In this document: positions 4,029 to 61,333 of the stretch, piece after piece
How positions within the stretch are numbered: the stretch's first letter is position 1
Layout: each line of letters begins with the position of its first letter
NCBI GenBank assembly: GCA_019454045.1
Contig: SKCR01023354.1
Span: 1-64,000, forward strand
DNA: 64,000 nucleotides
Reading direction: 5' to 3'
Source: Zanthoxylum bungeanum
Lineage: Eukaryota; Streptophyta; Magnoliopsida; Sapindales; Rutaceae
The notes under the pieces: model-generated
Database searches by the model: none
What the model was told of the DNA's origin: nothing
Seen by the model: the letters and a program-made list of their open reading frames with translations, nothing else
Position numbers and translations under genes: made by a program

Positions 4029-6014
4029 TGTTGGGTTTCTACGCTCTAACCGGGATCGATTTAAGCAAAGAAACCATGTGCAAATGCAGCAAGGAAGTTG
4101 CAGAATACTTACAATGATCGGTTGAACGATGCGACGAAGAAAAATCTTTTCCTCCAAGGTGATAAAGCTCTCGGCAGTGGGCAGAAATTTGGCCTCCAAA
4201 TTTTCGGTCATCACCTCCAAGTGTGCTCCATTGATGCTCCAAGCTCCAAGCTTCTCAAATGGTGATTCCAAGCTCACAAGTTGGTTTCCCTATCACCTTA
4301 GGATGACTCCTTTGTGTGCTAGCACTCATGATTTTGCAACAAAATCTTCACTTTGTTTCTCCTTTGTTCACAGCAGTAGCAGAAAAATAGAAGAAGAAAT
4401 GTGGTCCAAGACCGTGAGAGAGAGGAGGGAAATGGCTCAAAACCGTGTGTATTGAAGAGATAGAGTGATGAATTAATTGGTTTGTGTATCTAATACACAA
4501 TATTGATTTTCCAAAATCAATTAATTGATTTACCAAATTCAAAATTGGTAAGTGGCATTAAAGCCAACCAACTACTTCCATCAATCACTCAAATGACAAG
4601 TTGTCACATCACTCAAAGTGACAAGTGATTTGACGCTTGATGTGACTAATGATTTGACGCTTGATGTGACTTGTGGGCCGCACTTAAATTCGCAATACGA
4701 GTGTGCCCGCAAACACTCCCGGGCTCGGGTTCACTAATTCCAAATTAACGAATTTTCCGTAGCGTCGTAATTAAATAATTATGCCTAGCAAAATTACTAT
4801 TCACGTCGCTAACGAATTAATTCTAAATTAACTCGTTCGCCCGAATTAAAATCTAATTTCAATTTCGCGTCGAAATCCAATTTTGTATAATATATCGAAT
4901 ATATTATTTTATCGATTAATTCCAAATTAATCGTTCTCTCTCTTTAATTAATATTTTATCCCATATAAAATATCTCCGTAATTAATTCCAAATTAATTTT
5001 CTCTCTCATCATTAATTAATCCCAGATTAATAAAGTGCGAGTCATACGTAATCGGTGAATCTTCGGGAAGCTACCTATGAGATCCCCGGATATGTTGGCA
5101 GTAAATCCGGTCGTCGGACTATCCGAACATGTATGTACCTAGTACTACGGTTTTACCGATTTACAAGACAAGGTTGGCTTCTAGCAAAACGCCATGCCTA
5201 CCCAATTCTCCAGAAATATCCTTACATGAATAAGTGATCTATATCAGGCGTAGTATACGTAGTATTGCGTATTTCGATCCAGTATCGGATGTCACGTGCA
5301 AGGCCTGGGGCTGGAAATGTTTCTGCCCCATACGAAGCACATATCGGATCTCTGGTAACTAGTCTATATAATCGGATAAACATGACCTAGTCATTTTATC
5401 CCGATTACTGCAGTACATAAGAGAACCAGTTCCGTATCCTACGTGATCATCATCTCCACTATGACTGGAGTGATACTTCCATCTAGACATCACACCCAAT
5501 ACACTACGATTCTCAATATACCCAGAAGAGGCGTACACAGAACCTGTTAAAGCCCTGGACGACCAAAACCAAAGCGTATTGATTCCATAGACACATAGTC
5601 ATACTACCAATGGAATTCTGAGGGGTCTATCCAGAGTGAAGCTGTTTTTCGTACCATCGGTAAAACACAACCTCCTATTACACTTGCATGAGTATCCTAT
5701 ACCCAAATATATGATAAATATGCCGTTATGCCCTCACAACGCGCACAAGTGTAATACTAGTCTATTATGCATTATCGATGTCCAATCTCGATAATACTAC
5801 GACTAGGGATATTTAATGATTAAACCTTCGTTGATTGATACTGTCTCATATCTTATCAATCCGGAACTAATCATATGGACCTTCTATCATTTATACATCT
5901 TGGTGATCTAATCACAAATGATAAAAGAGCAATTTCCTTTGTCACATAGTTAATTTGTACAACAACACCATGATCTTTACAAATAGTGATGCTATGGGTC
6001 ATAACTGTCCAACA
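4029..6014 (-). repeat. 3' LTR of copia family, insertion 2
   Basis: On the plus strand it runs from TGTTGGGTTTCTACG to CTGTCCAACA, 1986 bp. It is followed on the right by ATCTCCCACTTGGC, the reverse complement of the family polypurine tract (GCCAAGTGGGAGAT). It is therefore the 3' LTR of a minus-strand element whose internal part continues at 6015-6194 and, past a nested gypsy element, at 12597-12867. Part of the central conserved block is deleted near 5580. Confidence 0.85.
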
Positions 6015-6194
6015 ATCTCCCACTTGGCACATATCCAATCACTCAAGTTTCCTACACCCGAACTATGTACGGTTCGCTCAAATTTCTACTGAGAAAATGC
6101 TTTCGTCAGCGGATTTGTAAGGTTATCACCTGATGCGATTTATTCGACAATCACATCGCCACGATGTATGATCCGAACGAATCAGATGAATATT
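6015..6194 (-). mobile_element. 3' internal end of copia insertion 2 (left part)
   Basis: This holds the polypurine tract and the last part of the degenerate pol region. It is closely similar to 22945-23120 and 48156-48330. It is interrupted at 6194/6195 by the gypsy element and resumes at 12592. The last five bases, ATATT (6190-6194), are the left copy of that element's target-site duplication. Confidence 0.85.
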
Positions 6195-7917
6195 TGATGA
6201 GCGGAAAATATATCAATATTTACCGCCCCTTTAACTTAATATTTTATTTAGTTTCTCGAGTTTGATGAACGTTTTGATGTGTTTTAGTTTATTTTGCAGA
6301 TAAAATAATATCGGGTCTCAATGAAATCATTTAGGATGAAATATGGGTCAAATAAGGGCAATTATTGGACTTGATATTTTAATTTTGGAGATTGGAAACT
6401 TGAAAGGGCGTTTTGACGAAGTGAAGTTTTGGAAATTCCAATTTTGCGCATCTTTCATATTTTGGGCATAACTTTTTACTCAGATATCAGATTGAGATGA
6501 TTCAAGTTCCAGATTAAAGAAGACTCAAAGATCTACAACTTTGAAAGACAAAGTAATTTCGAATTCTGAAGATTTCATGCCCGAAATTGATGAACCAGCC
6601 AGAAGTGTGTGTGTGTAATTATTAAAGTCACTTTCAATCATTTTCAAAGCAAAAAAATAAATTAATAATAAAAATAAAAATTATCAAATCATCACCAAAC
6701 ATGATAGAGATTAGTGGAGCAATTAATAATGGATTTGGTGGAGCAATTAGTGGAGCAATTAGTGGAGCAATTAGTGGAGCAATTAATAATTGATTTGGTG
6801 GATGATTTGATGGAGGCAAAATTTTGCCTATAAATACCAAGCCATTTCATTTGTAAAATTCATACTTTCTTCTAAGGAATTCCTTAAGAATACTAAGAAG
6901 ATTGTATCTTGTTTGTTTATTTATAGCTTTTAATAATTAATTTCCGCTTTCGCACTTTCTTTTCTTTACTGTTCAGTTTTTACTTTCCGCAATTTACTTT
7001 TATGCACAGTACTTTTCTTTCTTTAATTTTCAGCAATTTACTTTTCAGCAATTTACTTTTCAGCAATTTACTTTCAGCATTTACTTTTCAGCAATTTACT
7101 TTTCAGCTTTTACTTTATGTCTTTTACTTTTCAGCATTTTTATTTTATGTCTTTTATTTTTAAGTTTTTACTAGCCCTAGTTATGTGTTAGTTATCTGGG
7201 GTTGTGATGAATTCTAATATCACCGGTTTATAAGGGGTTATTTTATAGTTTGGGTAATTTAAAGGTTTACTTATTAAGTCTTAAGCTTAATGCTTCTTGT
7301 TGTCTGATCACCAATAAGATTGATGTGGTAAATCTAAAATGAACTAGACATAGGGATTTTAGGTTTCAGCCTTAGACTTAATAGCCCACGATCTTCCTTG
7401 AGGATAGATAACCCTTTAATAGATTTCCTTACAGGATAGACATATACCTGTCAGGCGGGGGTAAGCCATAATTGGAACTTAAACTTAATGAATCCAGATA
7501 ATTTGGTTGACATAGACATATGGTTCAATTGGGTTAAACTGGGTATTTGCGTCTGACCATCGACATAGGCTTTTGCATAATTTAGTGTTCCAGGTTAGTA
7601 AACTGATTTATTACACAAACATAAAATAATCACTTCATCTTTTAAAAGATATTAGAATGATTCACAACCCTAGATCTTTGTGTCTTTTATTTTCCTTAGT
7701 ATTTTCTTTTATCTTTTTATTTATTATTTATTTAGCAAATCTACAATCAACCAAATCAATCAAGCAATCATTCTTTCTCCCTCAATTAGATATCTGTAAA
7801 TAAATAGATTCAATAATTAATAACAATAGTAGGAATTAAGTCCTCGTGGGATCGATATTTTTATACTACTTGAACGGTACGTGCGCTTGCGTTATACGTG
7901 TTGTTTTACGCCGGTCA
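6195..7917 (+). repeat. 5' LTR of the LOG-carrying gypsy element
   Basis: It starts TGATGAGCGGAAAATAT and ends TTTACGCCGGTCA, 1723 bp. It contains a minisatellite of the GGAGCAATTAGT type (about 6716-6790) and a TATA-like CTATAAATA at 6828-6837. It also holds an 18-19 bp repeat of the TTTTCAGCAATTTACT type around 7030-7140. It is twice as long as its 3' partner, which lacks about 840-870 bp just after the TATA-like site. Confidence 0.9.
6828..6837 (+). promoter_or_regulatory. Putative TATA box in the gypsy 5' LTR
   Basis: CTATAAATAC lies in the LTR about 635 bp from its start, after the GGAGCAATTAGT minisatellite. The same motif is kept in the 3' LTR at about 12359-12368, just before its deletion point. 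If active it would drive plus-strand transcription through gag and the LOG sequence. No transcription evidence is visible in the sequence. Confidence 0.5.
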
Positions 7918-7923
7918 AGTTTT

Positions 7924-7940
7924 TGGCGCCGTTGCCGGGG
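7924..7940 (+). other. Primer-binding site, tRNA-Asp type
   Basis: TGGCGCCGTTGCCGGGG begins seven bases after the LTR end. It is complementary to the 3' end, including CCA, of plant tRNA-Asp(GTC). It marks the plus-strand orientation and agrees with an Athila/Tat-like gypsy origin. Confidence 0.85.
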
Positions 7941-8048
7941 ACTTATATTTCTTGAGTTATTAATTTTGAAGCTATCTAATTTACTTGTATCTAATTTTCT
8001 TTATCTGTAATTTTTATTTCTTTATTGTATTTTCAGGTGATTGAAAAA

Positions 8049-9245
8049 ATGGAACATTATTGGGAGATTGAGAGATTACGAGCTTTACAAGAAGATACAC
8101 CCCACATCTGGGAGCAACAGTCCGGTTTTCTGAGGCCTGTTGTCCAGCCCAACAATTATCACTGGATGCCAGAACCAAGCAATACCACATTTGCTCAATA
8201 GAACGAAATGGGTAGATGTGAGATATGTGACGGTAACCACCCAAGTAATTATTGCGAGTACAACTACAATCCAGGGTGGCAGAGCTATCAAAATCCTTCA
8301 TGGTACGAAGAACCATCATATTTTCCATCTTATCCACCATCCACCTATGATTTTTATCAAGAACCAGAATAATCAGAGGAAGAATCATTGGTTGACATGC
8401 TCAAAGATTGGTTCCAGAAACGGGACGAAAAGTTGGATACAATGCTTGAAACATGCCAGAATCAATTTGAAAGTATTCAGAGACAATCAGCATCAATTCA
8501 GAGAATGACAGATCAAATGAGACAATTCACAGAAAACCAAAACTACATACCTCAAGAATCAATTTCAGATGACACTGATAAAGCCTTCAAATACCAATCA
8601 TTTCACAATGACACTTCAACAGAGGAGGAGGCTGAGCAGTATCAACAACCAGAGGTATCAGTTCAGGAGCTCGAACCGGCAAAGTCTCGATTTGATTTTT
8701 ATTATTCTGACTCTGATGAGGATGAAGCTGATCTATTTGTACCAACTGCACCAACAACGGAGGATCAAACTTTCAATCCTCAAAATGAAGATCTTGGAGA
8801 TTCCATTGCACAAATGTTTGAAGAAGATCTACTTGAGCCAATCATTTCACTCAGATCAGAGGATGAAGACCTAATGTCAGACACATCTTTTCATCCTCAG
8901 GTGGAGCAAGAAGAAGAGCAAATGAAGGAGCAAATGTCTGACCTTATTGAAAATCCAGAGCATTCAGGAGAAACATCGCTGTTTTGGGGAGTACAAATTA
9001 AAGATATCAACCAGAAGCTTGACAGAATGGAACTCCCATTCCAAGTCAAGCACCATACGAGACCTCCTGATTTTCTTTCTTTCTTTGCAGGAACCACTGG
9101 AGTAACAAGGAGCAAAAAGGTGGCACGAGCACTGAATGAGACAAAACTCTTTTTGCCACTTTACCGTTGGAAAAGACCCTTCAAAAGCAACGCTCACGGG
9201 ATTGTCTTTAATCGGACATCCAAAACGACATTGAAACCTCCTTAA
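8049..9245 (+). pseudogene. gag-like ORF with two in-frame stops
   Basis: A single frame of about 398 codons starts at ATG 8049 and is broken by TAG at 8199 and TAA at 8370. The segment from 8388 to 9245 is open (285 codons, entered by TTG). Between the stops lies CEICDGNHPSNYC, a CX2CX3HX4C zinc knuckle like those of Athila-type Gag. The rest is rich in Glu, Asp and Gln with heptad-like stretches (DKLDTMLETCQNQFESIQ-type), so coiled coil is likely. No protease or polymerase motifs follow. Identification as gag rests on the knuckle, the position after the primer site and the element type. Gag is the structural protein that packages element RNA; this copy cannot make it full length without readthrough. 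Confidence 0.7.
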
Positions 9246-9751
9246 TAGATGAATTTCAGTCACGTCTGGCTGAAGACGAAAAATTTAGCGCTAGCAGGGA
9301 GGCAACCCATGCAATTTGTTGTAATTTGTTTTCATATTTTGTGTGAACTTTTTAATTTTGTGTGTTATTTTTGTAGGGAAAGGCACAAACGAAGCATTTT
9401 AAGACATAATGAATTGTGTTTGGCAATCAAAAATGAGAAACAATTCATTAGCGATGGCTGAGTAAGGAATGAAATCTTGAGACACATCCTAATGGATTTA
9501 TATACCAACGAGTGGCGTATTGTGTACACAATTCCGTTGCCTTAATTATTGCTTTGATTCGCTTTTCTATGTAATTATCTTTATTTTCGTAGACATGATC
9601 CATACTTTTTGACCTTTCACGATCTCTTTTGTTGTTTAGCTAACAATCGTCCTTTGGAAGATATTAGTGCTATTATTACTCGCCCTTTTTCAGGTACTAT
9701 AAATTCAGCCCGTCATTGCACATTTGAAGGCATCCAGAGTTGAAAAAAAAA
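9246..9751 (+). other. Spacer between gag and the LOG sequence
   Basis: It contains GGGAGGCAACCCA at about 9297-9309, a motif I associate with the region after the coding part of Athila/Tat-type elements. A plus-strand frame at 9249-9461 is not recognised. The stretch just before the LOG start (about 9690-9751) ends in an A-run and could be the captured 5' untranslated region. Confidence 0.5.
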
Positions 9752-10407
9752 ATGGAAGCCACTTCAAGAAGACGAGTTGAAAACATCTGCGTGTTTTGCG
9801 GTGGTAGTAGTGTGGTACTAAGCCACAATACATAGAAGCAGCACAGGAATTGGGTCGAGTCTTAGCTGCAAGGAATATGCACTTAATATATGGCGGAGGA
9901 AATCTTGGACTTATAGGGATCGTTTCAAAGGCTGTACAGGAAGGAGGCAGTCATGTTTTGGGAATCATCCCAAAACCCTTGGCAGAGGCAAATCTTATTG
10001 GATCATCAAACGGAGAGGAACTGATCGTGCCAGGTATGTCTGAACGACTGGTAGAAATGATTAACCGTGCTGATGCTTTTATCGCTTTGCCAAGTGGCTT
10101 GGGTACATTGGAGGAAATTTTTATAGTTCTATCTTGGGCGAACCTGAACATACACCAGAAACCACTTGGACTGTTTAATGTTGATGGATTTTATGATTTT
10201 CTTTGTGTGTTTCTTGATGATGCCCGAAGAAATGGGTTCGTGTCAAAACCTATGAAAGAACTCCTCTTCACTGCCAGAACTGCTCCGGATCTAATAGACC
10301 AACTCATAACCTATGAACCACAAGTTGACCCTATCCTTTCAAAGATAAATTGGTCCGAGGACGATCGTGGTAAGAGGCGTCGAATTAATCTGGATCTTAA
10401 CCTTTAA
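9752..10407 (+). pseudogene. Captured LOG-like cytokinin riboside 5'-monophosphate phosphoribohydrolase
   Basis: LOG enzymes release the active cytokinin base from its riboside monophosphate in the cytosol. The frame begins at ATG 9752 (ENICVFCGGSS, the usual LOG N-terminus), is frameshifted between about 9805 and 9820, then stays open from KPQYIEAAQELGR to the stop at 10405-10407. The part 9850-10407 alone encodes 185 residues. Visible family motifs are YGGGNLGLIG, GIIPKPL, RADAFIALP and PSGLGTLEEIF. The last corresponds to the PGGxGTxxE active-site signature with the first Gly changed to Ser but the Glu kept. The total of about 218 codons fits the family (about 210-220). There are no introns, whereas plant LOG genes have several, so an mRNA origin is likely. 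The tail has GKRRR followed by LDLNL. It lies in the same orientation as the element, between gag and the polypurine tract. LOG-family identity is firm; activity is doubtful. Confidence 0.9.
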
Positions 10408-11733
10408 TTTCCTGTAGAATTTCAGCTAACCAGGTATTATTTTCTAAACTCTTCTTCTACTGTTTAAAACATTGGGGACAATGTCTCATTTAGGTTTGGG
10501 GGAGGGAATTAGTTGATCAGTACCTTGTTTTTAGTTTGTGTGTTGTTTTTATTTTTAGTCCAAAATTTTTCGAAAAATACAAAAAAATAAAAAAATAAAA
10601 ATTTTCAAAAATTACAAAAATATATATATTTTTTTTATGTTTTTTGTTTTGACTAAAAATGTGAAATTGGTAAGAGATAGCTGAGTAAGGAGTTTCTACT
10701 CCTGAGACGTATCTCAAGCCTATTTTCGAAATAAGTTAATTGTTGTTTATTTCCTTTAGAATTATTTAATTTGTGAATTCTCCATAAAACGGACTAAAAT
10801 GGATCTTCATATGCAGTTGACAGATATTATCAACATATATAGTAACATACGGACATGAGCTAAAATTGAAAAGTTTGTAAATTCAGTGCTCTAGTTTAAT
10901 TGGAGGAAGCATCTTAAAAAAATGATGGAGTGAGTAAAAAAAAAAAAAAAAATCCGAGATCCGGGTTATTAAGTCTGTAAGGGTGTTTTAACACCTAGTG
11001 CCCTAAAACCAACTGGTTTGGGAGTCACTGGCCCAAAGCTCGTTACATGGATCGAAGATGCTGCAAAAATATATATATTTGAAGCCTGAGTAATTAAGTC
11101 CGTAGGGGTGTCTTAACACCTGGTGCCCTAAAACCAACTGGTTTGGGAGCCACCGACCCAACACTCGCTACATAGACGGAATTTATTGTATATAAATAAA
11201 AAATAGAAAAAAAAATCAAAGAAAAAATCAGAAAAATGAAAAATTATTCCATTGCTGCAAAAAGGTGTTAAATCTGATAGAACTTTAGGACAAAAATATT
11301 ACTCTCTTATCAACTGCACTTATGACTGTTGTGGGAAAAAATGAGTTGTTTAATATTTTGTTGGCTGTGTATATGGAGAATGGTAAAAATAATCGGAGAA
11401 TCTACTTATTCAGTAATTTAGAAAGAAACAAAACAACTAGTAACTTGGAGTAGAAGTTTCACCTGATTAATCACTAACTTCTCTTTTCTCTTGTCTTTTT
11501 GCTTTTGTGTGCATTAGTTTTAACTAACTTTTTACTTTTGTAAAAATGTTTGTGGGTATCATTGCTGTAAGCCCTCACGAGACTACAACTCGTCCACTAA
11601 GGACACCTAGGGGTTTAAAGGCTTGTTGCATATGCTAAATGCAACCGTGATCCCTACGAAAGTGGCTTAGTTTAATTTTATTTTTATTTTTTTGTTTTGC
11701 TCGAGGACTAGCAAGATTTTAGTTTTGGGGGTG
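10408..11733 (+). other. 3' untranslated region of the gypsy element
   Basis: This non-coding stretch has AACATTGGGGACAATG (about 10468-10483) followed by GGTTTGGGGGAGGG, known to me from Athila/Tat-type 3' regions. It also has several A-rich tracts and a diverged direct repeat (listed separately). It ends in the purine tract AGTTTTGGGGGTG at about 11721-11733, directly before the 3' LTR, as expected for the polypurine tract that primes plus-strand DNA synthesis. Confidence 0.75.
10961..11180 (+). repeat. Diverged direct repeat, about 92-97 bp twice
   Basis: Copies at about 10961-11052 and 11084-11180 share TAATTAAGTC/TATTAAGTC, a GGTGTNTTAACACC dyad, GTGCCCTAAAACCAACTGG and TTTGGGAG. They are separated by an A/T-rich spacer. 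The dyad could form a small hairpin. This kind of motif recurs in the 3' region of Athila-like elements as far as I recall. Confidence 0.75.
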
Positions 11734-12591
11734 TGATGAGCGGAAAACATATCAATATTTACCGCCCCTTTAACTTAATATTTTATTTAGTTTCTCGAGT
11801 TTGATGAACGTTTTGATGTGTTTTAGTTTATTTTGCAGATAAAATAATATCGGATCTCAATGAAATCATTTAGGATGAAATATGGGTCAAATAAGGGCAA
11901 TTATTGGACTTGATATTTTAATTTTGGAGATTGGAAACTTGAAAGGGCGTTTTGACGAAGTGCAGTTTTGGAAATTCCAATTTTGCGCATCTTTCGTATT
12001 TTTGGCATAACTTTTTACTCAGATATCAGATTGAGATGATTCAAGTTTCAGATTAAAGAAGACTCAAAGATCTACAACTTTGAAAGACAAAGTAATTTCG
12101 AATTCTGAAGATTTCATGCCCGAAATTGATGAACCAGCCAGAAGTGTGTAGTGTGTAATTATTAAAGTCACTTTCAATCATTTTCAAAGAAAAAAATAAA
12201 TTAATAAATAAATAATAAAAATTATCAAATCATCACCAAACATGATAAGAGATTAGTGGAGCAATTAATAATGGATTTGGAGGAGCAATTAGTGGAGCAA
12301 TTAGTGGAGCAATTAATAATTGATTTGGTGGATGATTTGATGGAGGCAAAATCTTGCCTATAAATACCAAGCCATTTTCTTTTGTCTTTTATTTATTTAT
12401 TTATTTAGCAAATCTACAATCAACCAAATCAATCAAGCAATCATTCTCTTCTCCCTTAATTAGATATCTGTAAATAAATAGATTCAATAATTAATAACAA
12501 CAGTAGGAATTAAGTCCTCGTGGGATCGATATTTTTATACTACTTAAACGATACGTGCGCTTGCGTTATACGTGTGTGTTTACGCCGGTCA
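11734..12591 (+). repeat. 3' LTR of the LOG-carrying gypsy element, internally deleted
   Basis: It starts TGATGAGCGGAAAACAT and ends TTTACGCCGGTCA, 858 bp. It aligns with the 5' LTR at both ends but jumps from the sequence after the TATA-like site (AAGCCATTTTC) to the T-rich part near the end (TTTATTTAGCAAATC). This removes about 840-870 bp. It also has fewer GGAGCAATTAGT repeats than the 5' LTR. Confidence 0.9.
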
Positions 12592-12596
12592 ATATT

Positions 12597-12867
12597 TGAA
12601 GTATATATCTTGATCTTTGATGAGACCATTAATTCTTTAGCCTGTGTTATAGCCTAGCTCAGCTCCTAACAGAACTATTCCTAATCTTATTAGGATTATT
12701 ATCGATCCAAAAGGCTTCTATTGCTGCCTCAGCCGCATCAATAATCCACTTTTATTGTTTATACGGTAACAATATCTTGCTTGGAAGATTTCCAGCTCAC
12801 TGTTTCGTTATTCAAACTGTATATTACCTTTATTATGACTTATAGTCATTTTTATCGGTTAGGAAAC
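12597..12867 (-). mobile_element. Degenerate RNase H region of copia insertion 2 (right part)
   Basis: This continues 6015-6194 after the gypsy insertion. It matches 23120-23390 and 48340-48600, the 3' end of the broken pol of this family. The segment around 12645-12670 carries the same small deletion as those copies, which removes the part encoding the CDN motif of RNase H. It is cut at 12867/12868 by a plus-strand copy of the same family. Confidence 0.8.
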
Positions 12868-14895
12868 TGTTGGAAAATTATGACCCATAGTGTCACTATT
12901 TGTACAGATCATGGTGTTGTTGTACAAATTAACTATGTGACAAAGGAGATTGCACTCTTATCATTTGTGATTAGATCACCTAGATGTATAAATGATGAGA
13001 GGTCCTTATGATTTGTTCCTGGATTAAGAATGATATGAGACAGTATCAATCCACGACGGATAAATCATTAAATATCCCTAGTCAGAGTATTATCGAGATT
13101 GGACATCGATAAATACGAAAAAGACTAGTATTACACTTGTGCGCGTTGTGAGGGCATAACGACATAGTTCTCATATATTTGGGTATAGGATACTCATGCA
13201 AGTGTAATAGGAGGTTGTGTTTTACCGATGGTACGGGAAACAACTTCGCTCTGGATAGACCCCCTCGGAATTCCATTGGTAGTATGACTATGTGTCTATG
13301 GAAGTACGAAATCAGGGTAGGTGTATTTGGTCTTAACCTGAGACTTGCACCGCTAATGCTTGCGACAATCAATATACTTTGGTTGCGGTCGTCCAGGGCT
13401 TTAACAGGTTCTGTGTACGCCTATGCTGGGTATATTGAGAATCGTAGTGTGTTGGGTGTGATGTCAAGAAGGAAGTGTCACTCCAGTCATATGGAGATGA
13501 TGGTCACGTAGGATACGGTACTAGTACTCTTAAGTAGTGCAGTCATCGGGATAAAATGACAAGGTCATCTTTATCCGATATAGAGACTAGTTACCAAACA
13601 TCTGATATGTGCTTCGTACGGGGCAGACACAATTCCAACGACAGGCCTAGCACGTGATCATCCGATACTGGATCGACATACACAATACTACGTATACTAC
13701 GCCTGATATAGATCCTTACATTCCTGTAAGGATATTTCTGGAGAATTGGGTAGGCATGGCGTTTTGCTAGAAGCCAACCTTGTCTTGTAAATCGGTACAA
13801 ACGTAGAACTAGGTACTTACGTGTTCGGATAGTGCGAAGACCGAATTTATTGCCAACATATCCGGGGATCTCATGGGTCGCTTCCCAAAGATTCACCGAT
13901 GACGTATGACTCGCACTTTAATTAATCTGAGAGAGAAAATTAATCTGGATTAATTGCGGAGATATTTTATCTGGGATAAAATATCATTTAAAGAGAGATA
14001 ACGATTAATTTGGAATTAATCGATAAATTAATATATTTGATATATTATACGAAATTAGATTTCGACACGGAATTAAAATTAGATTTTAATTCGGGCGAAC
14101 GAGTTAATTTAGAATTAATTCATTAGCGACGTGAATAGTGATTTCGCTAGGTAAAATCATTTAATTACGTCGCAACAGATAATTCGTTAATTTGGAATTA
14201 ACGAACCCGAGCCCGAGATTATTTGCGAGCGCATTCGCATTTCGAATTCGAGTGCGGCACGCAAGTCAAATCAAGCGTCAAATTGCTAGTCGTATCTAGC
14301 GTCACGTCATCCGTCAATCAAGTGATAGATGTCTTTCACTTTGAGTGATTGACGCCAGTCACTATTCATTGATTGATGGATTGATGGAGTGATGTGTGTG
14401 GTTGGCAAGCATTTATGGCTTGATTTTTTGAAAAAATCAAAAGTGGTATATGTTAATTGATTTTTGGAAATCAATTAGTCAACACACAAACAACTCTCTC
14501 TTTCTATCATCTCTCTCTCTCTCGCCCATGTAGGGCTCTTTTCTCACTGGTTTTGGCAGTTCACTGCCATGAGCCAAGAGGAAAAGGGAAGCTTAGAGTC
14601 GCGATTTTGTGGCAAAATCGGGAGTGCTAGCACACTACGAAGTCATGCGAAGGTGATAGGGAATTACACCCATGAGCCGGGAATCATTTGACAAAGCTTG
14701 GAGCTTGACGAAGATGATCAAACCATGGCCGAAAATCAGTGAGCTGTGACAGTCCACTGCCGAGCAGAAAATCAGATTTTGTTGCCTCGCGCGTCGCTCA
14801 ACCGATCGATATAAGTATTCCGCAACTTCGTTGATTTGTATTTGCACTTGTTTCATGCTTGTTTAATGATCTTGGGACCTTAGCAAACACCAACA
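12868..14895 (+). repeat. 5' LTR of copia family, insertion 3
   Basis: It runs from TGTTGGAAAATTATGACCC to GCAAACACCAACA, 2028 bp, in plus orientation. It is followed directly by ATGGTATCAAAGC, the primer site. It contains the conserved central block (sense frame at 13179-13511) and the AT-rich dyad series at about 13920-14210. Left flank is GAAAC; the far end of the element is not in the window, so the duplication cannot be tested. Confidence 0.88.
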
Positions 14896-21091: not shown

Positions 21092-22944
21092 TGTTGGGTT
21101 TCTAGGTTTGTCCCCAAGATCGATTCAAGAATAGAAACATGTGTGAATACTCAAAAGAAGTATGGCGGAATCATACTTACATTGATCGGCTTTTGCGATG
21201 CGAGGAACAACAAAATCTTCAAGCTTTTCCTCCATGAAGCTCACGGTTTTTTGCCTCCATTTTGTGCTCAATTTGCTCGGCCAAGCTCCAAGCTTGGGTG
21301 TGCATTCCATGCCCATGGGTGGGTTTCCCTATCACCTTCGTAAGACTCCTAATGTGTGCTAGAACTTGGAAAAATTTGCCGCAAATCTTTCCCTATTCAT
21401 CTTCTTCTTTCTCGGCAATTACAGAAATTTGGAGAAGAAAATGGCCCAAGGCCGAGAGATGAGAAAGAGAGTGAGAAGAGATTGTGTTTTTGTGTGTTTT
21501 GTACCTAATACACAAAATGAAAGTCAAATACCAAAAATAATAAAAGAAATGGTAAATGTCTTTCAAGCCATCACATAAGTGTGTTGCACACTCAACCATC
21601 AACCAACAACTTCCATCACAATAAAGTGATAAAGTTGACTAGTGATGTGACGCTTGATGTGACATGTGGGCCCCACTTGATTCGAAATGCGAGTGGGCCC
21701 GCAAACACTCCCTGGCTCGGGTTCGCTAATTCCGAATTAACGAACTTTCTTTTGCGACGTAATTAAATCAAATTTAATTAAATAATTATACCTAGCATAA
21801 TTACTATTAACGTCGCTAACGAATTAATTCTAAATTTACTCGTTCGCTCGAATTAAAATCTAATTTTAATTCCGCGTCGAAATCTAATTTCGTATAATAT
21901 ATCGAATATATTATTTTATCGATTAATTCCAAATTAATCGTTCTCTCTCTTTAAATAATATTTTATTCCAGATAAAATATCTCCGTAATTAATCCTAGAT
22001 TAATTTTCTCTCTCTTAGAATTAATCCCAGATTAATAAAGTGCGAGTCATACGTCATCGGTGAATCTTCGGTAAGCGACCCATGAGATCCCCGGATATGT
22101 TGGCAGTAAATCCGGTCGTCGGACTATCCGAACACGTACGTACCTAGTACTACGTTTTTACCGATTTACAAGACATGGTTGGTTCTAGCAAAGCACCGTG
22201 CCTACCCAATTCTCCAGAAATATTCTTAAAGGAATATGTTATCTATATCAGGCGTAGTATACATAGTATTGCGTATTACGATCCAGTATCAGATGTCACG
22301 TGCTAGGTCTGTGGCTGAAATTGTGTCTGCCCCGTACGAAGCACATATCGGATCTCTGGTAACTAGTCTCTATAATCGGATAATCATAACCTAGTCATAT
22401 TATCCCGATAGCTGCAGCATAAAAGAGCACAAGTTCCGTATCCTACGTGATCATCATCTCCACTATGACTGGAGTGATACTTCCATCTTGACATCACACC
22501 CAATACACTACGATTCTCAATAGACACATAGTCATACTACCAATGGAATTCTGAGGGGTCTATCCAGAGCGAAGCTGTTCTCGTACCATCGGTAAACACA
22601 ACCTCATATTACACTTGCATGAGTATCCAATACCCAAATATATGAGAACTATGCTGTTATGCTCCCACAACGCGCACAAGTGTAATACTAGTCTTTTACG
22701 CATTATCGATGTCCGATCTCGATAATACTCTGACTAGGGATATTTAGTGATTAAACCTTCGTGGATTGATACTGTCTCATATCATCTCAATCCGGAACTA
22801 ATCATAAGGACCTTTTATCATTTATACATCTTGGTAATCTAATTACAAATGATAAAAAACAATTTCCTTTGTCACATAGTTAATTTGTACAACAACACCA
22901 AGATTTGTACAAATAGTGATGCTATAGGTCATAATTGTCCAACA
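21092..22944 (-). repeat. 3' LTR of copia insertion 5
   Basis: It runs TGTTGGGTTTCTAGG to AATTGTCCAACA on the plus strand, 1853 bp. It lacks about 130 bp of the central conserved block (junction near 22520) that the 5' partner retains at about 30241-30376. Confidence 0.9.
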
Positions 22945-25900
22945 ATCTCCCACTTAGCCTATAGCTAATCACTCAAGTGTCCTACACCCGAACTATGTAC
23001 GGTTCGCTCAAACTTCTGCTGAGGAAAGGCTTTCGTCAGCGGATTTGCAGTGTTTTCATCTGATGCGATTTATTCGATCATCATATCGCCATGATGTATG
23101 ATCCGAACGAATCAGATGAATATTTGAAGTATATATCTGGATCGTTGATGAGACCATTAATTCTTTAGCCTGTGATGTAGCCTAGCTCAGCTGCTAACAG
23201 AACTACTCCTAATCTAATTAGGATTATTATCGATCCAAAAGGCTTCTATTGCTACCTCAGCTGCAGTAATATTCTACTTTTGTTGTTTATTCGGTAACAA
23301 TATCTTGCTTGGAAGATTTCCAGCTCACTGTTCCGTTATTCAAACTGTATAGTACCTTTGTTACGACTTATAGTCATTTTTATCGGTTAGGAAACTTGCA
23401 ACGGTGAACCCAGTCACTTCAAGTTCTCTTTCTCCATAGTATAAGAAAGCATCCTTAGTTCATCTAAGATACTAAAGGATGTTCTTAACATCAATCCAGT
23501 GACTATCACTTGGATTGGCCTGATTGTGACTCCATATGCTCAAAGCATATGAGACACCAGGTCGCGTACATTTATTTCAATGTACAAGTTCTCGAAGAGT
23601 ATTAAAAACTTTAAATCTATCCCAGTAGATCTTTATTCCTAGAATAAAGGTTGTTTCTCCCAAGAATTCTATGGAGAATTTTCATGAAAGCCAAGCTTTC
23701 ACCGATTGTATTATGGGAATATCATTTCCAAGAAATGACATATCATCATTTTTAGGATATTCATTGTCAGTGCGCTCCCACTAACCTCCTTATATACACA
23801 AGAATCATTTTCGTTTTGAATTAAATCATATACCATTATGATTACATCAAAACAATTGTTCCAAGAACGCTATGCTTGCTTCAATCCATAAATGGATCGA
23901 ATTAACTCGCAAATCTTGTTTGCTCGTTTTGGTACTACAAAACCGTCATGATGTTATAAACATCCTCCAAAAGGTTTCCGTTAAGGAAAGCGGTTTTGGC
24001 ATTCAGCTGCCATATTTCATGAATGAAACATGCAGCATCAGCAAGCATTATCCAAATGGATTTAACCATGGCAACAGTTAAAATGTTTCGTCATAATCGA
24101 CACAATGTTGATAACGATACCTTTTCGCTACAAGCCTAGCTTAGTACATGGGTTTGTTGCCTTCCATGTATGTCTTTCTTGAAGACTTATATAGTACCAA
24201 TAGACACAATACCTTCCGGTACATCAACCAATATCCAAACTTGGTTGGTTTACATGGAATCCATTTCGAACTTCATGGCACTTTGCCATAATAGGGAGTC
24301 GATACCTTGTATCACTTCCTCATACGAAGTCAGTTCGTATTCCTCAATAAGATTGACATCTTTATGAGGTGAGATCAGAAACCCATACCTCCCAGGTTGT
24401 TTTCTGACTCTCTCCGACTTTCGCGGTTCTTGTGTATTGAAGATTATTGGTATAGTTTCATCCTTGATGAACTATTTGAGTTCCATTAAGGAATCGCTAC
24501 CTGGAATAGTATTACTTCGATTTTCATCGAGTTTTACTTTCCTCCCACTTACCACTACATATAGGTATTCCTCTTAGGAAAACCGCATGGCGAGCAACAA
24601 TTACATTGTTCTCTTGTGAGATGTATAAGTACTATACTTTGGTTATCGTTAGGATAACCCACAACTTAGGCACTTATCCGATTTGGGTTCTAGTTTGGTA
24701 TCATCCAAACATATGCCTAGCATTCCCAAATCTTCAGGAATGAGAAAACCCAGTTTCTTTCCTGTTCATATCTAATATGAAGTCTGTCAAACAGATTTTC
24801 ATGGAACCTTATTCAAAATAAGTTTTGCACTGTTTAATGCGTATCATATGAAGGAAATGGTAGCTCAGAGCGACTCATGATTAACCTTATCATGTCCAAC
24901 AAAATTTGATTTCTCTGTTCGGACACACCGTCAAACTGAGGTGTTCCGGGAGCAGTCCACTATGAAAGAATACTATACTCTTTCAGGTATTCGAGAAACT
25001 TATTGCTTAAGTATTTTCCACCATGGTCTAACCGTGACGGTATAATACTTTAGCCGGTCTTTCTGTCTACTTCGTGTCGAAACTCTAAAAGTTTCCGATT
25101 TGTGTTTCAAAAGAAACACATAACCATAACGCGATGCCACATCCGTAAAGGTCACGAAACATTCATATCAACCTTTAGCCTAGCTTGACATGGGCCCACT
25201 TACGTCATTATGAACGAGGGCTAACAGATCGATGACATTTGCACTTTTACCAAGTAAAAGGCACTTTAGGCACTTTGCCTAATAAACTAGATTCGTAGAC
25301 TTTATTTGAATAGAATCAAATCCGTCTTAGTATCCACTCTTCAAAAGTGTGGATATACGAGTCTTGTTTAATTGTGTCCCAGACAACAATGCCACAAATA
25401 AGTCTTATCTGATCAAATCAGTTTGAGCTATTTGTTTGTCATTTTATACGTTTGAGATTCATATATATTCAAAATATAAATATTGTTATTCACATCTAAT
25501 GTGTTTATCTCAATATCATCTTTATAAAATAAAACACTTTAGTGTTCTAGAATATAAAGGTATACCCGCAACGGGTTAAACCCTGATATAGAGATAATGT
25601 TTCTAGTCAAACTAGTTACATTCTAACAGTTTCCTAATTTAAGTACACACCCGAAGGGTAGTTCCTAAACTTAGGTTTCTACGGTTAAAACAGCGGCTTT
25701 CGTCCCGTTTCTGATTTGTAGATAAATCTCATCTGAAGTCAGTATCCTGCTCTCAGCAGATTCTACACATCAGCACATATTTATGTACACATTTAGTATC
25801 TAAAATCCAATTTTAATACTAGTAGTGAACATGTTGATGACAAACATATTTGAAGTCGGAGCCTTGCCCGTCTTCAATTCCTTTATGTCTGCCTTGTCCA

Positions 25901-56979: not shown

Positions 56980-57720
56980 GAGCTGAGAAGAGCATTTGGA
57001 TCTGGGGGAATGTCCCCTCCCCAGACCAATAGAGGGCCGACCATGGGGGAGATGCTCTGATCCCATGCCGATGATAAGTCTCTCGGTGGGACGTATCCCG
57101 ACCCCGAGCTGAAGAAAGACTTGGCTTTGGGGGAATATTACATCCCCAGTCCAAAAAAGCCGACTCGGTGGGACGTAACCCGACCCCGAGCTAAAAGAAA
57201 GACTTGGCTCTGGGGGAATGTTACATCCCTAGTCCAAAGAAGCCGACTCGGTGGGACGTAACCCGACCCCGAGCTAAAAGAAAGACTTGGCTCTGGGGGA
57301 ATGTTACATCCACAGACCAATAGAGGGTCGACCATGGGGGAGATGCTCCGATCCCATGCCGATGATAAGTCTCTCGGTGGGACGTATCCCGACCCCGAGC
57401 TAAAGAAAGACTTGGCTCTGGGGGAATGTTACATCCCCAGTCCAAAGAAGCCGACTCGGTGGGACGTAATCCGACCCCGAGCTAAAAGAAAGACTTGGCT
57501 TTGGGGGAATGTTACATCCCCAGTCCAAAGAAGCCGACTCGGTGGGACGTAACCCGACCCCGAGCTGAAAGAAAGACTTGGCTCTGGGGGAATGTTACAT
57601 CCCCAATCCAAAGAAGCCAACTCGGTGGGACGTAACCCGACCCCGAGCTGAAAGAACAAGTGGCCTCGGTGGAACGAAGTCCAGCCCCGAGCCGAATAAA
57701 CAAGCGGCCTCGCCGGAACG
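56980..57720. repeat. 83-bp repeats with a variant unit (array 1)
   Basis: Units of 83 bp, with phases at about 57160, 57243, 57450, 57533 and 57616, contain GCCGACTCGGTGGGACGTAA, CCCGACCCCGAGCT and CTTGGCTCTGGGGGAATG. A 124-bp variant unit with ACCATGGGGGAGATGCTC interrupts twice. Two further units of about 50 bp (GGCCTCGGTGGAACGAAG type) lead into the 44-bp array. Long frames on either strand are repeat artefacts. Confidence 0.85.
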
Positions 57721-57734
57721 AAATCCATCCCCGA

Positions 57735-58356
57735 GCCGAAAAGAGACATCGGTCTCGGTGGTACAAGAGCAGACCCGAGCCGGAAAGAGACATCGATCTC
57801 GGCGGTACAAGAGCAGACCCGAGCTGGAAAGAGACATCGGTCTCGGCGGTACAAGAGCAGACCCGAGCCGGAAAGAGACATCGGTCTTGGCGGTACAAGA
57901 GCAGACTCGAGCCGGAAAGAGACATCGGTCTCGGCGGTATAAGAGCAGACCCGAGCCGGAAAGAGACATCGGTCTCGGCGGTACAAGAGCAGACCCGAGC
58001 CGGAAAGACACATCGGTCTCGGCGGTACAAGAGAAGACCCGAGCCGGAAAGAGACATCAGTCTCGGCGGTACAAGAGCAGACCCGAGCCGGAAAGAAACA
58101 TCGGTCTCGGCGGTACAAGAGCAGACCCGAGCCGGAAGGAGACATCGGTCTCGGTGGTACAAGAGCAGAACCGAGCCGGAAAGACACATCGGTCTCGGCG
58201 GTACAAGAGCAGACCCGAGCCGGAGAGAGACATCGGTCTCGGCGGTACAAGAGCAGACCCGAGCCGGAAAGAGACATCGGTCTCGGCGGTACAAGAGCAG
58301 ACCCGATCCGGAAAGAAACATTGGTCTCGGTGGTACAAGAGCAGACCCGAGCCGTA
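57735..58356. repeat. 44-bp tandem array, about 14 copies (array 1)
   Basis: Period is exactly 44 bp (CATC at 57747, 57791, 57835 and on). Each unit holds GGTCTCGGCGGTACAAGAGC followed by AGACCCGAGCCGGAAAGAGA. Copies differ by single bases. Because 44 is not a multiple of 3 and the unit lacks stops in most frames, it yields overlapping long frames on both strands. Confidence 0.95.
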
Positions 58357-58558
58357 AAATAAATATCAAAACCATTGTGTGGGCCATAACAAACAAGCAT
58401 AATCAAATGTCAAACTAAGACAGAAGAGGTCTTACTCACCTTTTTGGGATCTGTTGCCTTTCTTGCAACTCTACAAGGGTCACTATAAGCGAGGCTCTTC
58501 TTAATACATCCTCTCTGCATCTCAGCATTCCACGCATCCGACCGGATGACTTCCACTA

Positions 58559-59866: not shown

Positions 59867-60500
59867 GGGACGTAACCCGACCCCCAGACCAATAGAGAGC
59901 CGACCATGGGGGAGATGCTCCGATCCCATGCCGATGATAAGTCTCTCGGTGGGACGTATCCCGACCCCGAGCTGAAGAAAGACTTGGCTCTAGGGGAATA
60001 TTACATCCCCAGTCCAAAGAAGCCGACTCGGTGGGACATAACCCGACCCCGAGCTAAAAGAAAGACTTGGCTCTGGGGGAATGTTACATCCCTAGTCCAA
60101 AGAAGCCGACTCGGTGAGACGTAACCCGACCCCGAGCTAAAAGAAAGACTTGGCTCTGGGGGAATGTTACATCCCCAGACCAATAGAGGGTCGACCATGG
60201 GGGAGATGCTCCGATCCCATGCCGATGATAAGTCTCTCGGTGGGACGTATCCCGACCCCGAGCTAAAGAAAGACTTGGCTCTGGAGGAATATTACATCCC
60301 CAGTCCAAAGAAGCCGACTCGGTGGGACGTAACCTGACCCCGAGCTAAAAGAAAGACTTGGCTCTGGGGGAATGTTACATCCCCAGTCCAAAGAAGCCGA
60401 CTTGGTGGGACGTAACCCGACCCCGAGCTAAAAGAAAGACTTGGCTCTGGGGGAATGTTACATCCCCAGTCCAAAGAAGCCGACTCGGTAGGACGTAACC
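59867..60500. repeat. 83-bp repeats with a variant unit (array 2)
   Basis: This is the second copy of the 83-bp/124-bp repeat region, in the same order as 56980-57720 but with a different unit count. It begins with a fused, shortened unit near 59867. Confidence 0.85.
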
Positions 60501-60597
60501 CGACCGCGAGCTGAAAGAACAAGTGGCCTCGGTGGAACGAAGTCCAGCCCCGAATCGAATAAACAAGCGGCCTCGGCGGAACGAAATCTAGCCCCGA

Positions 60598-61133
60598 GCC
60601 GAAAAGAGACATCGGTCTCGGCGGTACAAGAGCAGACCCGAGCCGGAAAGAGACATCAATCTCGGCGGTACAAGGGCAGACCCGAGCCGGAAAGAGACAT
60701 CAGTCTCGGCGGTACAAGAGCAGACCCGAGCCGGAAAGAGACATTGGTCTCGGCGGTACAAGAGCAGACTCGAGCCGGAAAGAGACATCGGTCTCGGTGG
60801 TAGAAGAGCAGACCCGAGCCGGAAAGAGACATCGGTCTCGGCGGTACAAGAGCAGACCTGAGCCGGAAAGAAACATCGGTCTCGGCGGTACAAGAGCAGA
60901 CCTGAGCCGGAAGGAGACATCGGTCTTGGCGGTACAAGAGCAGACCCGAGCCGGAAAGACACATCGGTCTCGGAGGTACAAGAGCAGACCCGAGCCAGAG
61001 AGAGACATCGGTCTCGGCGGTACAAGAGCAGACCCGAGCCGGAAAGAGACATCGGTCTCGGCGGTACAAGAGCAGACCCGAGCCGAAAAGAAACATCGGT
61101 CTCGGCGGTATAAGAGCACACCCGAGCCGTAAA
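60598..61133. repeat. 44-bp tandem array, about 12 copies (array 2)
   Basis: Same 44-bp unit as array 1 with about two fewer copies, so the array length varies between the two internal regions of one tandem structure. Confidence 0.95.
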
Positions 61134-61333
61134 AAAAATATTAAAACCATTGTGTGGGTCCTAACAAACAAGCATAATCAAATGTCAAACTAAGACAGAA
61201 GAGGTCTTACTCACCTTTTTGGGATCCGTTGCCTTTCTTGCAACTCTACAAGGGTCACTATAAGAGAGGCTCTTCTTAATACATCCTCTCTGCATCTCAG
61301 TATTCCACGCATCCGACCGGATGACTTCCGCTA

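What the first reader, a model, noticed from the sequence alone, without database searches (positions are those of the whole stretch)
9752..10407. LOG cytokinin-activation gene captured inside an LTR retrotransposon
An intronless LOG-family sequence of about 218 codons lies between gag and the polypurine tract of a TSD-flanked gypsy element, in the same orientation, where pol should be. The sequence shows LOG motifs (YGGGNLGLIG, PSGLGTLEEIF) and complete element borders (LTRs, tRNA-Asp primer site, purine tract, ATATT duplication). The lack of introns suggests mRNA capture. If the element family amplified with the gene, a hormone-activating enzyme would have been spread under LTR promoters. 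One frameshift and the Gly-to-Ser change in the signature argue that this copy is inactive.
Basis: partly seen in the sequence, partly recalled or inferred. Interest (0 to 1): 0.88.

Follow-up and report, generated by a model that had tools for sequence, protein, structure and literature searches.

The report
Hormone-enzyme gene spread by a retrotransposon
A plant jumping-gene family carries a cytokinin-activating (LOG-type) enzyme gene as a built-in accessory gene and has copied it to many places in a large plant genome; sequence comparison suggests that the enzyme, rather than the element's own gag-like protein, is what selection kept working, although the copy in this window is broken.

Summary
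An LTR element at 6195-12591 (LTRs, ATATT duplication, primer site, purine tract, an empty site elsewhere in the window) carries an intronless LOG-family gene at 9752-10407; this copy has one frameshift and a private Gly-to-Ser change. The capture is family-wide: 40 of 40 scored genomic places match nearly end to end (the window itself and 39 others at 97-98%), and 22 of 29 loci chosen by the gag-like region carry LOG at the same place. In longer relatives LOG lies after gag, a protease-like stretch, what I read as an integrase end, and a second accessory ORF related to carlavirus nucleic-acid-binding proteins; so LOG did not land in pol's slot. The capture is old: these LOGs form a clade about 50% identical to ordinary plant LOG. 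LOG in the element shows purifying selection (pN/pS 0.24), the gag-like ORF of the same 21 loci does not clearly (0.70). The proteins end in an LxLxL tail not seen in the other LOGs compared. LOG (YgdH) domains in gypsy elements of Citrus and poplar are in print, so this is a new variant of a known kind: high copy, and without reverse transcriptase in every form examined. Enzyme activity and benefit to the element are inferred.

The parts
6190..6194 (.). target-site duplication ATATT, left copy
   Evidence: empty site
6195..7917 (+). 5' LTR (TGATGAGCGG...ACGCCGGTCA), 1723 bp
   Evidence: another copy holds the full-length form (L018)
7924..7941 (+). primer binding site, TGGCGCCGTTGCCGGGGA, tRNA-Asp type (tRNA identity recalled, not computed)
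8049..9245 (+). degenerate gag-like ORF with internal stops; longest open part 8373-9245. Reading as C-terminal gag with a zinc-knuckle-like motif is by eye
   Evidence: no Pfam match over cut-off; pN/pS 0.70
9258..9377 (+). stretch matching the sequence just before ORF-X in longer relatives
   Evidence: L003, L005, L008, 80-82%
9381..10394 (+). accessory module (ORF-X remnant plus LOG): 6 of 29 sister loci stop matching at 9381; two of them (L060, L065) match again from 10394
9476..9514 (+). possible short remnant of ORF-X, LETHPNGFIYQRV
   Evidence: 46% over 13 aa, E 0.002 within 561 bases: weak
9681..9693 (+). splice-acceptor-like CGCCCTTTTTCAG (GT follows) 58 bases before the LOG ATG; the CAG is kept in all 32 rows printed, one of them the window copy
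   Evidence: function inferred
9752..10407 (+). intronless LOG-family gene, one frameshift after about codon 20, Gly-to-Ser in PGGLGTLEE; 217 codons in intact copies
10384..10404 (+). C-terminal tail INLDLNL (LxLxL motif) of LOG
11723..11733 (+). polypurine tract TTTTGGGGGTG
11734..12591 (+). 3' LTR with an 865-bp internal deletion relative to the 5' LTR
12592..12596 (.). target-site duplication ATATT, right copy
22927..23324 (.). related repeat in the same window without the element (empty site)

Best explanation
This is a decayed copy of a high-copy LTR-retrotransposon family (Ty3/gypsy, probably Athila lineage) in which a LOG gene is a long-established accessory gene, the last ORF before the 3' LTR. 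Shown: the same LTR family bounds a longer form (gag, protease-like stretch, ORF-X, LOG) and a short form (gag-like ORF, LOG); LOG sits at the same place in both; LOG coding is under purifying selection during spread whereas the gag-like ORF is not clearly so; the same class of LOG occurs in other sequence sets, and Acer has the ORF-X/LOG order. My reading, not confirmed by a profile: an integrase end lies between protease and ORF-X, so LOG is 3' of pol. Inferred: elements move with reverse transcriptase supplied in trans; LOG is made from a spliced subgenomic mRNA (a conserved acceptor-like site precedes its ATG); the protein is a nucleoside-5'-monophosphate phosphoribohydrolase that releases active cytokinin in the cell where the element is expressed, favouring dividing or meristematic cells and so the element's passage to the germ line; the C-terminal LxLxL tail adds a regulatory contact.
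For: Family-wide copies: 4650 first-look candidates for the LOG DNA; 40 scored, all 40 near full length (window 100%, 39 others 97-98%). Same position: 22 of 29 loci fetched by gag-like similarity (L040-L068; L041 differs from L040 at 3 bases) run on through LOG. Longer form: 28 of 40 scored places cover most of ORF-X through LOG without a break, one being the query. The element on C27215 has an LTR at L069:5443-7503, Retrotrans_gag (E 1.5e-20), a protease-like stretch (Asp_protease_2 E 0.003, below cut-off), ORF-X, LOG and the 3' LTR start in order. Selection: 21 of 28 loci had both genes long enough; LOG pN/pS 0.24 (95% 0.17-0.35), off-frame 0.77 and 1.76; gag-like 0.70 (0.50-1.02), off-frame 0.55 and 1.15; shared variants 32 syn:24 nonsyn in LOG against 15:57 in gag-like (p 3.8e-5); singletons 25:45 against 37:84 (p 0.52), as expected of drift after insertion. 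14 of 29 copies keep an uninterrupted 217-codon ORF (L041 dropped). R98, P113, G115, G117, T118, E120, E121 invariant in 14 aligned LOGs. Old class: branch support 100/99. Tail: LxLxL in 41 of 47 element-type proteins judged to reach the tail, 0 of 48 others.
Against: No enzyme assay or RNA evidence. The integrase-end reading has no Pfam or PDB support. No copy with reverse transcriptase plus LOG was seen: in all 4 longer loci examined (L003, L005, L008, L075) there is no room for RT between the protease-like stretch and ORF-X. At least 4 of the 40 places match through ORF-X and stop near query base 1205, so ORF-X can occur without LOG at the usual distance. NCBIfam's cytokinin-LOG equivalog cut-off (300 bits) is not reached (114-120 bits for 5 proteins of this class), but neither by the two ordinary plant LOGs tried (114, 125). 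The sample was chosen by similarity to the window copy. Selection on LOG could partly reflect recombination with longer forms. Athila placement could not be tested without RT.
Confidence: 0.77

Rival explanations
1. Passive transduplication: a host gene copy hitch-hikes in a successful element and decays neutrally; any intact frames are just young.
For: The window copy is broken, 15 of 29 copies lack the intact 217-codon frame, and singleton variants of LOG and gag-like do not differ.
Against: In-frame pN/pS 0.24 with 32:24 shared variants against a relaxed gag-like ORF in the same loci; same LOG class elsewhere and the ORF-X/LOG order in Acer.
Confidence: 0.1
2. LOG in the element has lost hormone function and acts as a nucleotide hydrolase or structural/regulatory protein for the element itself, for example through its LxLxL tail or on nucleotide pools.
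For: Divergent class (about 50% to ordinary LOG); extra conserved tail; MHxRK of ordinary LOGs reads MSxRL here; some plant LOGs act mainly as phosphohydrolases (PMC11593424, passages).
Against: The motif PGGxGTxxE and an invariant Arg and Glu are kept.
Confidence: 0.3
3. Selection acts only on LOG of an unseen autonomous form; short elements inherit fresh LOG by recombination and gain nothing from it.
For: Exchangeable module borders near w9381 and w10394; recombination among Athila elements is reported (PMC2410132, title and start of abstract in the listing only).
Against: Short forms keep gag-like and LOG together in 22 of 29 loci while only LOG stays clearly constrained.
Confidence: 0.3
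4. Recent capture of the host's own LOG mRNA by this element family.
For: Intronless, against host LOG matches that cover only residues 23/24 to 71 of the query, as exons would.
Confidence: 0.03

Closest known systems
YgdH/LOG-domain Ty3/gypsy elements of Citrus sinensis, C. clementina and Populus trichocarpa (Alvarado-Marchena 2022, PMC9289625, one results section read; it cites Steinbauerova 2011, not held)
   Same: LOG-type domain inside plant Ty3/gypsy LTR elements; the host here is placed near Sapindales species, the order of Citrus
   Different: The section read reports a domain hit in RT-based consensus elements (Populus only without their filter); here forms without RT, high copy, protein-level selection, a C-terminal tail and a second accessory ORF are described
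Phalaenopsis Ty3/gypsy elements with an AlkB-type m6A demethylase ORF (PMC9289625)
   Same: A host-type enzyme fixed as an accessory ORF of a gypsy lineage
   Different: Enzyme type and element size; the demethylase activity was assayed there, none here
Plant non-chromovirus Ty3/gypsy (Athila/Tat) elements with extra sense ORFs 3' of pol (Neumann 2019, PMC6317226; Vicient and Casacuberta 2020, PMC7264820; passages of both)
   Same: Extra ORF on the sense strand before the 3' LTR; tRNA-Asp among the primers of non-chromoviruses
   Different: The extra ORFs are a LOG and a carlavirus-NABP-like protein; lineage not testable without RT
Canonical plant LOG (Arabidopsis At2g37210, PDB 2a33)
   Same: Family profile, PGGxGTxxE motif, conserved Arg and Glu
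   Different: About 50% identity or less, no introns, C-terminal LxLxL tail, carried by a transposon
Carlavirus nucleic-acid-binding protein (Pfam Carla_C4, Viral_NABP)
   Same: ORF-X of the longer relatives passes both Pfam cut-offs
   Different: 182 aa, in a chromosomal retroelement, with homologues in several plants

Membership tests
LOG protein family (PF03641 / TIGR00730) | profile match above curated cut-off | tested here: met
   114 bits against 27; 142 against 96; intact copies 165-170 bits for TIGR00730
Cytokinin LOG equivalog (NF058542) | score above 300 bits | tested here: not met
   101 bits for the window, 114-116 for two intact copies; two ordinary plant LOGs also fail (114, 125), so the model does not discriminate here
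LOG protein family | PGGxGTxxE motif | tested here: met
   second Gly kept in 28 of 29 copies, Ser only in the window copy
LOG protein family | cytokinin phosphoribohydrolase activity | not testable with these tools
   no assay
LTR retrotransposon | paired LTRs TG...CA, TSD, PBS, PPT, empty site | tested here: met
Ty3/gypsy, Athila lineage | RT/RNaseH/INT phylogeny | tested here: inconclusive
   no RT in the window element or in the 4 longer loci examined; gag PF03732 and a sub-threshold protease match only; integrase end not confirmed
Plant Ty3/gypsy with sense extra ORF 3' of pol | extra ORF between pol end and 3' LTR, same strand | tested here: inconclusive
   LOG is the last sense ORF before the 3' LTR, after gag, a protease-like stretch and ORF-X; that the stretch before ORF-X is the end of pol is my reading
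Carlavirus-type nucleic-acid-binding protein (ORF-X of relatives) | PF01623 and PF05515 over cut-off | tested here: met
   31 against 20.9 and 29 against 23 bits; both again for P0121, P0168, P0206

The most novel reading that the evidence does not exclude
A retrotransposon lineage of plants carries a two-gene accessory module, a viral-type nucleic-acid-binding (perhaps silencing-suppressor-like) protein plus a hormone-activating LOG with an added corepressor-type LxLxL tail, and keeps LOG functional by selection even in elements that lack reverse transcriptase. LOG is thus a selfish trait by which the element changes the hormone state or chromatin of its host cell to favour its own transmission.
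Probability: 0.3. Interest if true: 0.9.

Novelty: new variant of a known kind. Interest (0 to 1): 0.65.

Why it matters
Host genes caught in plant retroelements are usually seen as passengers. Here the captured gene is the protein-coding part that selection most clearly preserves, in elements that encode no polymerase, in a high-copy family. This makes testable whether a transposon gains from steering a plant hormone, bears on how cytokinin-related genes multiply in large genomes, and warns that LOG-like hits in such genomes may be mostly transposon copies.

Tried and rejected
AlphaFold of ORF-X (24 sequences) gave mean pLDDT 55, pTM 0.30, so no fold search was run. IMG/VR scan with a LOG of this class: no relative. 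ORF-X against PDB sequences: nothing significant. The stretch I read as an integrase end: no Pfam match at E 10 for L005:3104-3652 and L075:1087-1470, only a sub-threshold LOR hit for L008:357-581, and no PDB relative. Profile PF01348, meant to find matK, gave nuclear maturase-type places; the nMAT3 search puts the host near Melia, Xanthoceras, Acer and Pistacia (86-83% among named hits; an unnamed one 89%), so Sapindales; species not settled. Steinbauerova 2011 is not held, so the older report is known only through PMC9289625. Searches for LOG or YgdH with retrotransposons listed two papers, one relevant. Searches for carlavirus proteins with retrotransposons showed none on such a protein among the titles and abstract starts listed (15 of 352; none found; 10 of 87), which is not proof of absence. 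A guess that the host is Zanthoxylum was not supported (none of the 8 listed papers holds the word). The splice acceptor is only a sequence pattern. Considered and rejected: LOG as a separate nested insertion (same place in 22 of 29 loci); LTRs of different elements (one family, one TSD).

Full report
1. Observation. The element is real and bounded. LTR5 6195-7917 and LTR3 11734-12591 begin TGATGAGCGG and end ACGCCGGTCA, with ATATT on both sides, a TGGCGCCGTTGCCGGGGA primer site and a purine tract. The flanks joined match 22927-23324 of the same window at 91% over 398 bases without gaps, an empty site in a related repeat. The LTRs differ at 59 of 845 aligned sites (K2P 0.0735), i.e. about 3-5 million years at rates recalled from the literature (1.3e-8 and 7e-9); the 3' LTR lacks 865 bp. 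LOG at 9752-10407 is a genuine family member, with a frameshift after about codon 20 and a Gly-to-Ser change not seen in 28 other copies.

2. Family-wide carriage. The window's genome (3.96 Gb, 51,709 contigs) gives 4650 first-look candidates for the 656-base LOG query; 40 were scored: the window itself and 39 others at 97-98%, nearly end to end. With an ordinary LOG protein as query there are 54,141 loose first-look candidates; of 150 scored, 145 show no stop inside the match. First-look numbers are candidates, not counts of copies, and the scored rows are the best ones. Among 29 loci fetched by similarity to the gag-like region (L040-L068; the window's own L039 left out), 22 continue through LOG, 1 breaks inside LOG (L052), and 6 stop matching at w9381 (L060, L063, L064, L065, L066, L068); L060 and L065 match again from w10394, inside the last codons of LOG, with 1.1-1.2 kb of unrelated sequence between, and the others do not within the roughly 1.4 kb held. 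L064 instead has an ORF with Pfam Transposase_32 there. So the 3' accessory module seems exchangeable at fixed borders.

3. Where LOG belongs. Loci L003, L005 and L008 carry LOG preceded by ORF-X. On contig C27215 the order is LTR (L069:5443-7503), gag with PF03732 (E 1.5e-20), a protease-like stretch (Asp_protease_2 E 0.0029 and RVP_2 E 0.0087, both below cut-off), a stretch I read from memory of Athila proteins as an integrase end, ORF-X, LOG, 3' LTR. The integrase reading has no Pfam or PDB support. In all 4 longer loci examined (L003, L005, L008, L075) the protease end runs straight into that stretch, so there is no room for RT, RNase H or an integrase core. 28 of 40 scored places hold most of ORF-X plus LOG without a break, one being the query; of the other 12, four (C24036, C1370, C32699, C45426) match through ORF-X and stop near query base 1205, i.e. 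ORF-X without LOG at the usual distance, and the rest start later or end early.

4. ORF-X. Its 182-aa homologues pass Pfam cut-offs for Carla_C4 and Viral_NABP. 328 homologues were found; named ones among the 120 listed come from Xanthoceras, Populus, Acer and Orobanche. Of 150 scored copies in this genome 122 have no stop inside the match. An Acer yangbiense protein joins an ORF-X part (82 of 163 columns identical to an Acer ORF-X) to a LOG part (83 of 193 to P0012), so the order is shared with Acer. That carlavirus proteins of this family suppress RNA silencing is recalled, not tested.

5. Age and relations. Element LOGs and intronless LOGs from metagenome contigs form one side of a branch (26 rows, support 100/99), apart from three canonical-type plant LOGs and bacterial-type LOGs; two further rows, P0072 and P0112, fall inside it; the root is a midpoint (39 of the 120 listed homologues plus 5 loci). 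That the metagenome proteins are transposon-borne is likely but untested. Two listed places reach 70% over the whole query (C2730, C42560) and were not followed.

6. Selection. In the 21 of 28 loci with both genes long enough, LOG pN/pS is 0.24 (bootstrap 0.17-0.35; shifted frames 0.77 and 1.76) and gag-like 0.70 (0.50-1.02; shifted frames 0.55 and 1.15). Shared variants are 32 synonymous to 24 nonsynonymous in LOG and 15 to 57 in gag-like (p 3.8e-5); singletons do not differ (p 0.52). With all 29 copies the LOG value is 0.225; with the 14 intact copies 0.257. Singletons reflect drift after insertion; shared variants reflect the propagating lineages. This supports that the LOG protein mattered while these elements spread. 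Caveats: sampling by similarity to the window copy, shared ancestry of copies, possible recombination with longer forms.

7. Protein. R98, P113, G115, G117, T118, E120 and E121 (P0002 numbering) are invariant in 14 aligned LOGs, the broken window copy not among them; roles of these residues are recalled. Of 72 element-type proteins 43 end in LxLxL within the last ten residues; of the 47 judged by a simple pattern to reach the tail, 41; of 48 others, 0 (the others were not tested for completeness). LxLxL as a corepressor-binding (EAR) motif is recalled; a literature search for LOG with EAR motif listed 10 of 109 papers, none on such a tail by title or abstract start.

8. Known or new. LOG-type (YgdH) domains in gypsy elements of Citrus and, without their filter, Populus are in print (PMC9289625; abstract, passages and one results section). 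The host here lies near Sapindales species by nMAT3, the order of Citrus, so this may be the same lineage. Not found in what I could read: forms without RT at high copy, selection on LOG but not clearly on gag-like, the tail, the viral-type partner and the exchangeable module.

9. Mechanism. Most likely the element makes a working LOG from a spliced mRNA (acceptor-like CAG kept in 32 of 32 rows, followed by GT in 31) and alters cytokinin in the cells where it is active; nothing beyond sequence supports the last steps.

Noticed in passing
L005:2428-2964 (-), C40897:149386-149931 and many others: A 182-aa plant retroelement protein related to carlavirus nucleic-acid-binding proteins, with 46,456 loose first-look candidates in this genome and homologues in Populus, Acer, Xanthoceras and Orobanche.
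   Followed up: partly
L064:3-587 (-): A sister element without LOG in the stretch held has a PF20167 (putative plant transposon protein) ORF at the accessory position, suggesting cassette exchange.
   Followed up: partly
window 22019, 29739, 37587, 47082, 54953 (starts): Copies of one repeat on the + strand spaced 7.7-9.5 kb apart, as in a tandem row of elements sharing LTRs.
   Followed up: no
window 57595-58466 and 60414-61241: Two blocks of a 44-bp tandem repeat giving long open frames on both strands.
   Followed up: no
window 4619-6020 and 12862-14316: The LOG element sits between two inverted copies of another repeat (arms 86-98% complementary).
   Followed up: no
L017:2265-2699 (-): A more divergent LOG fragment (50% to P0002) near an LTR of the same family, so more than one element LOG lineage may exist in this genome.
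   Followed up: no
C2730:2279-2497, C42560:158933-159151: Two places with 70% identity to Arabidopsis LOG over 73 residues without an intron, unlike both host exons and element copies.
   Followed up: no
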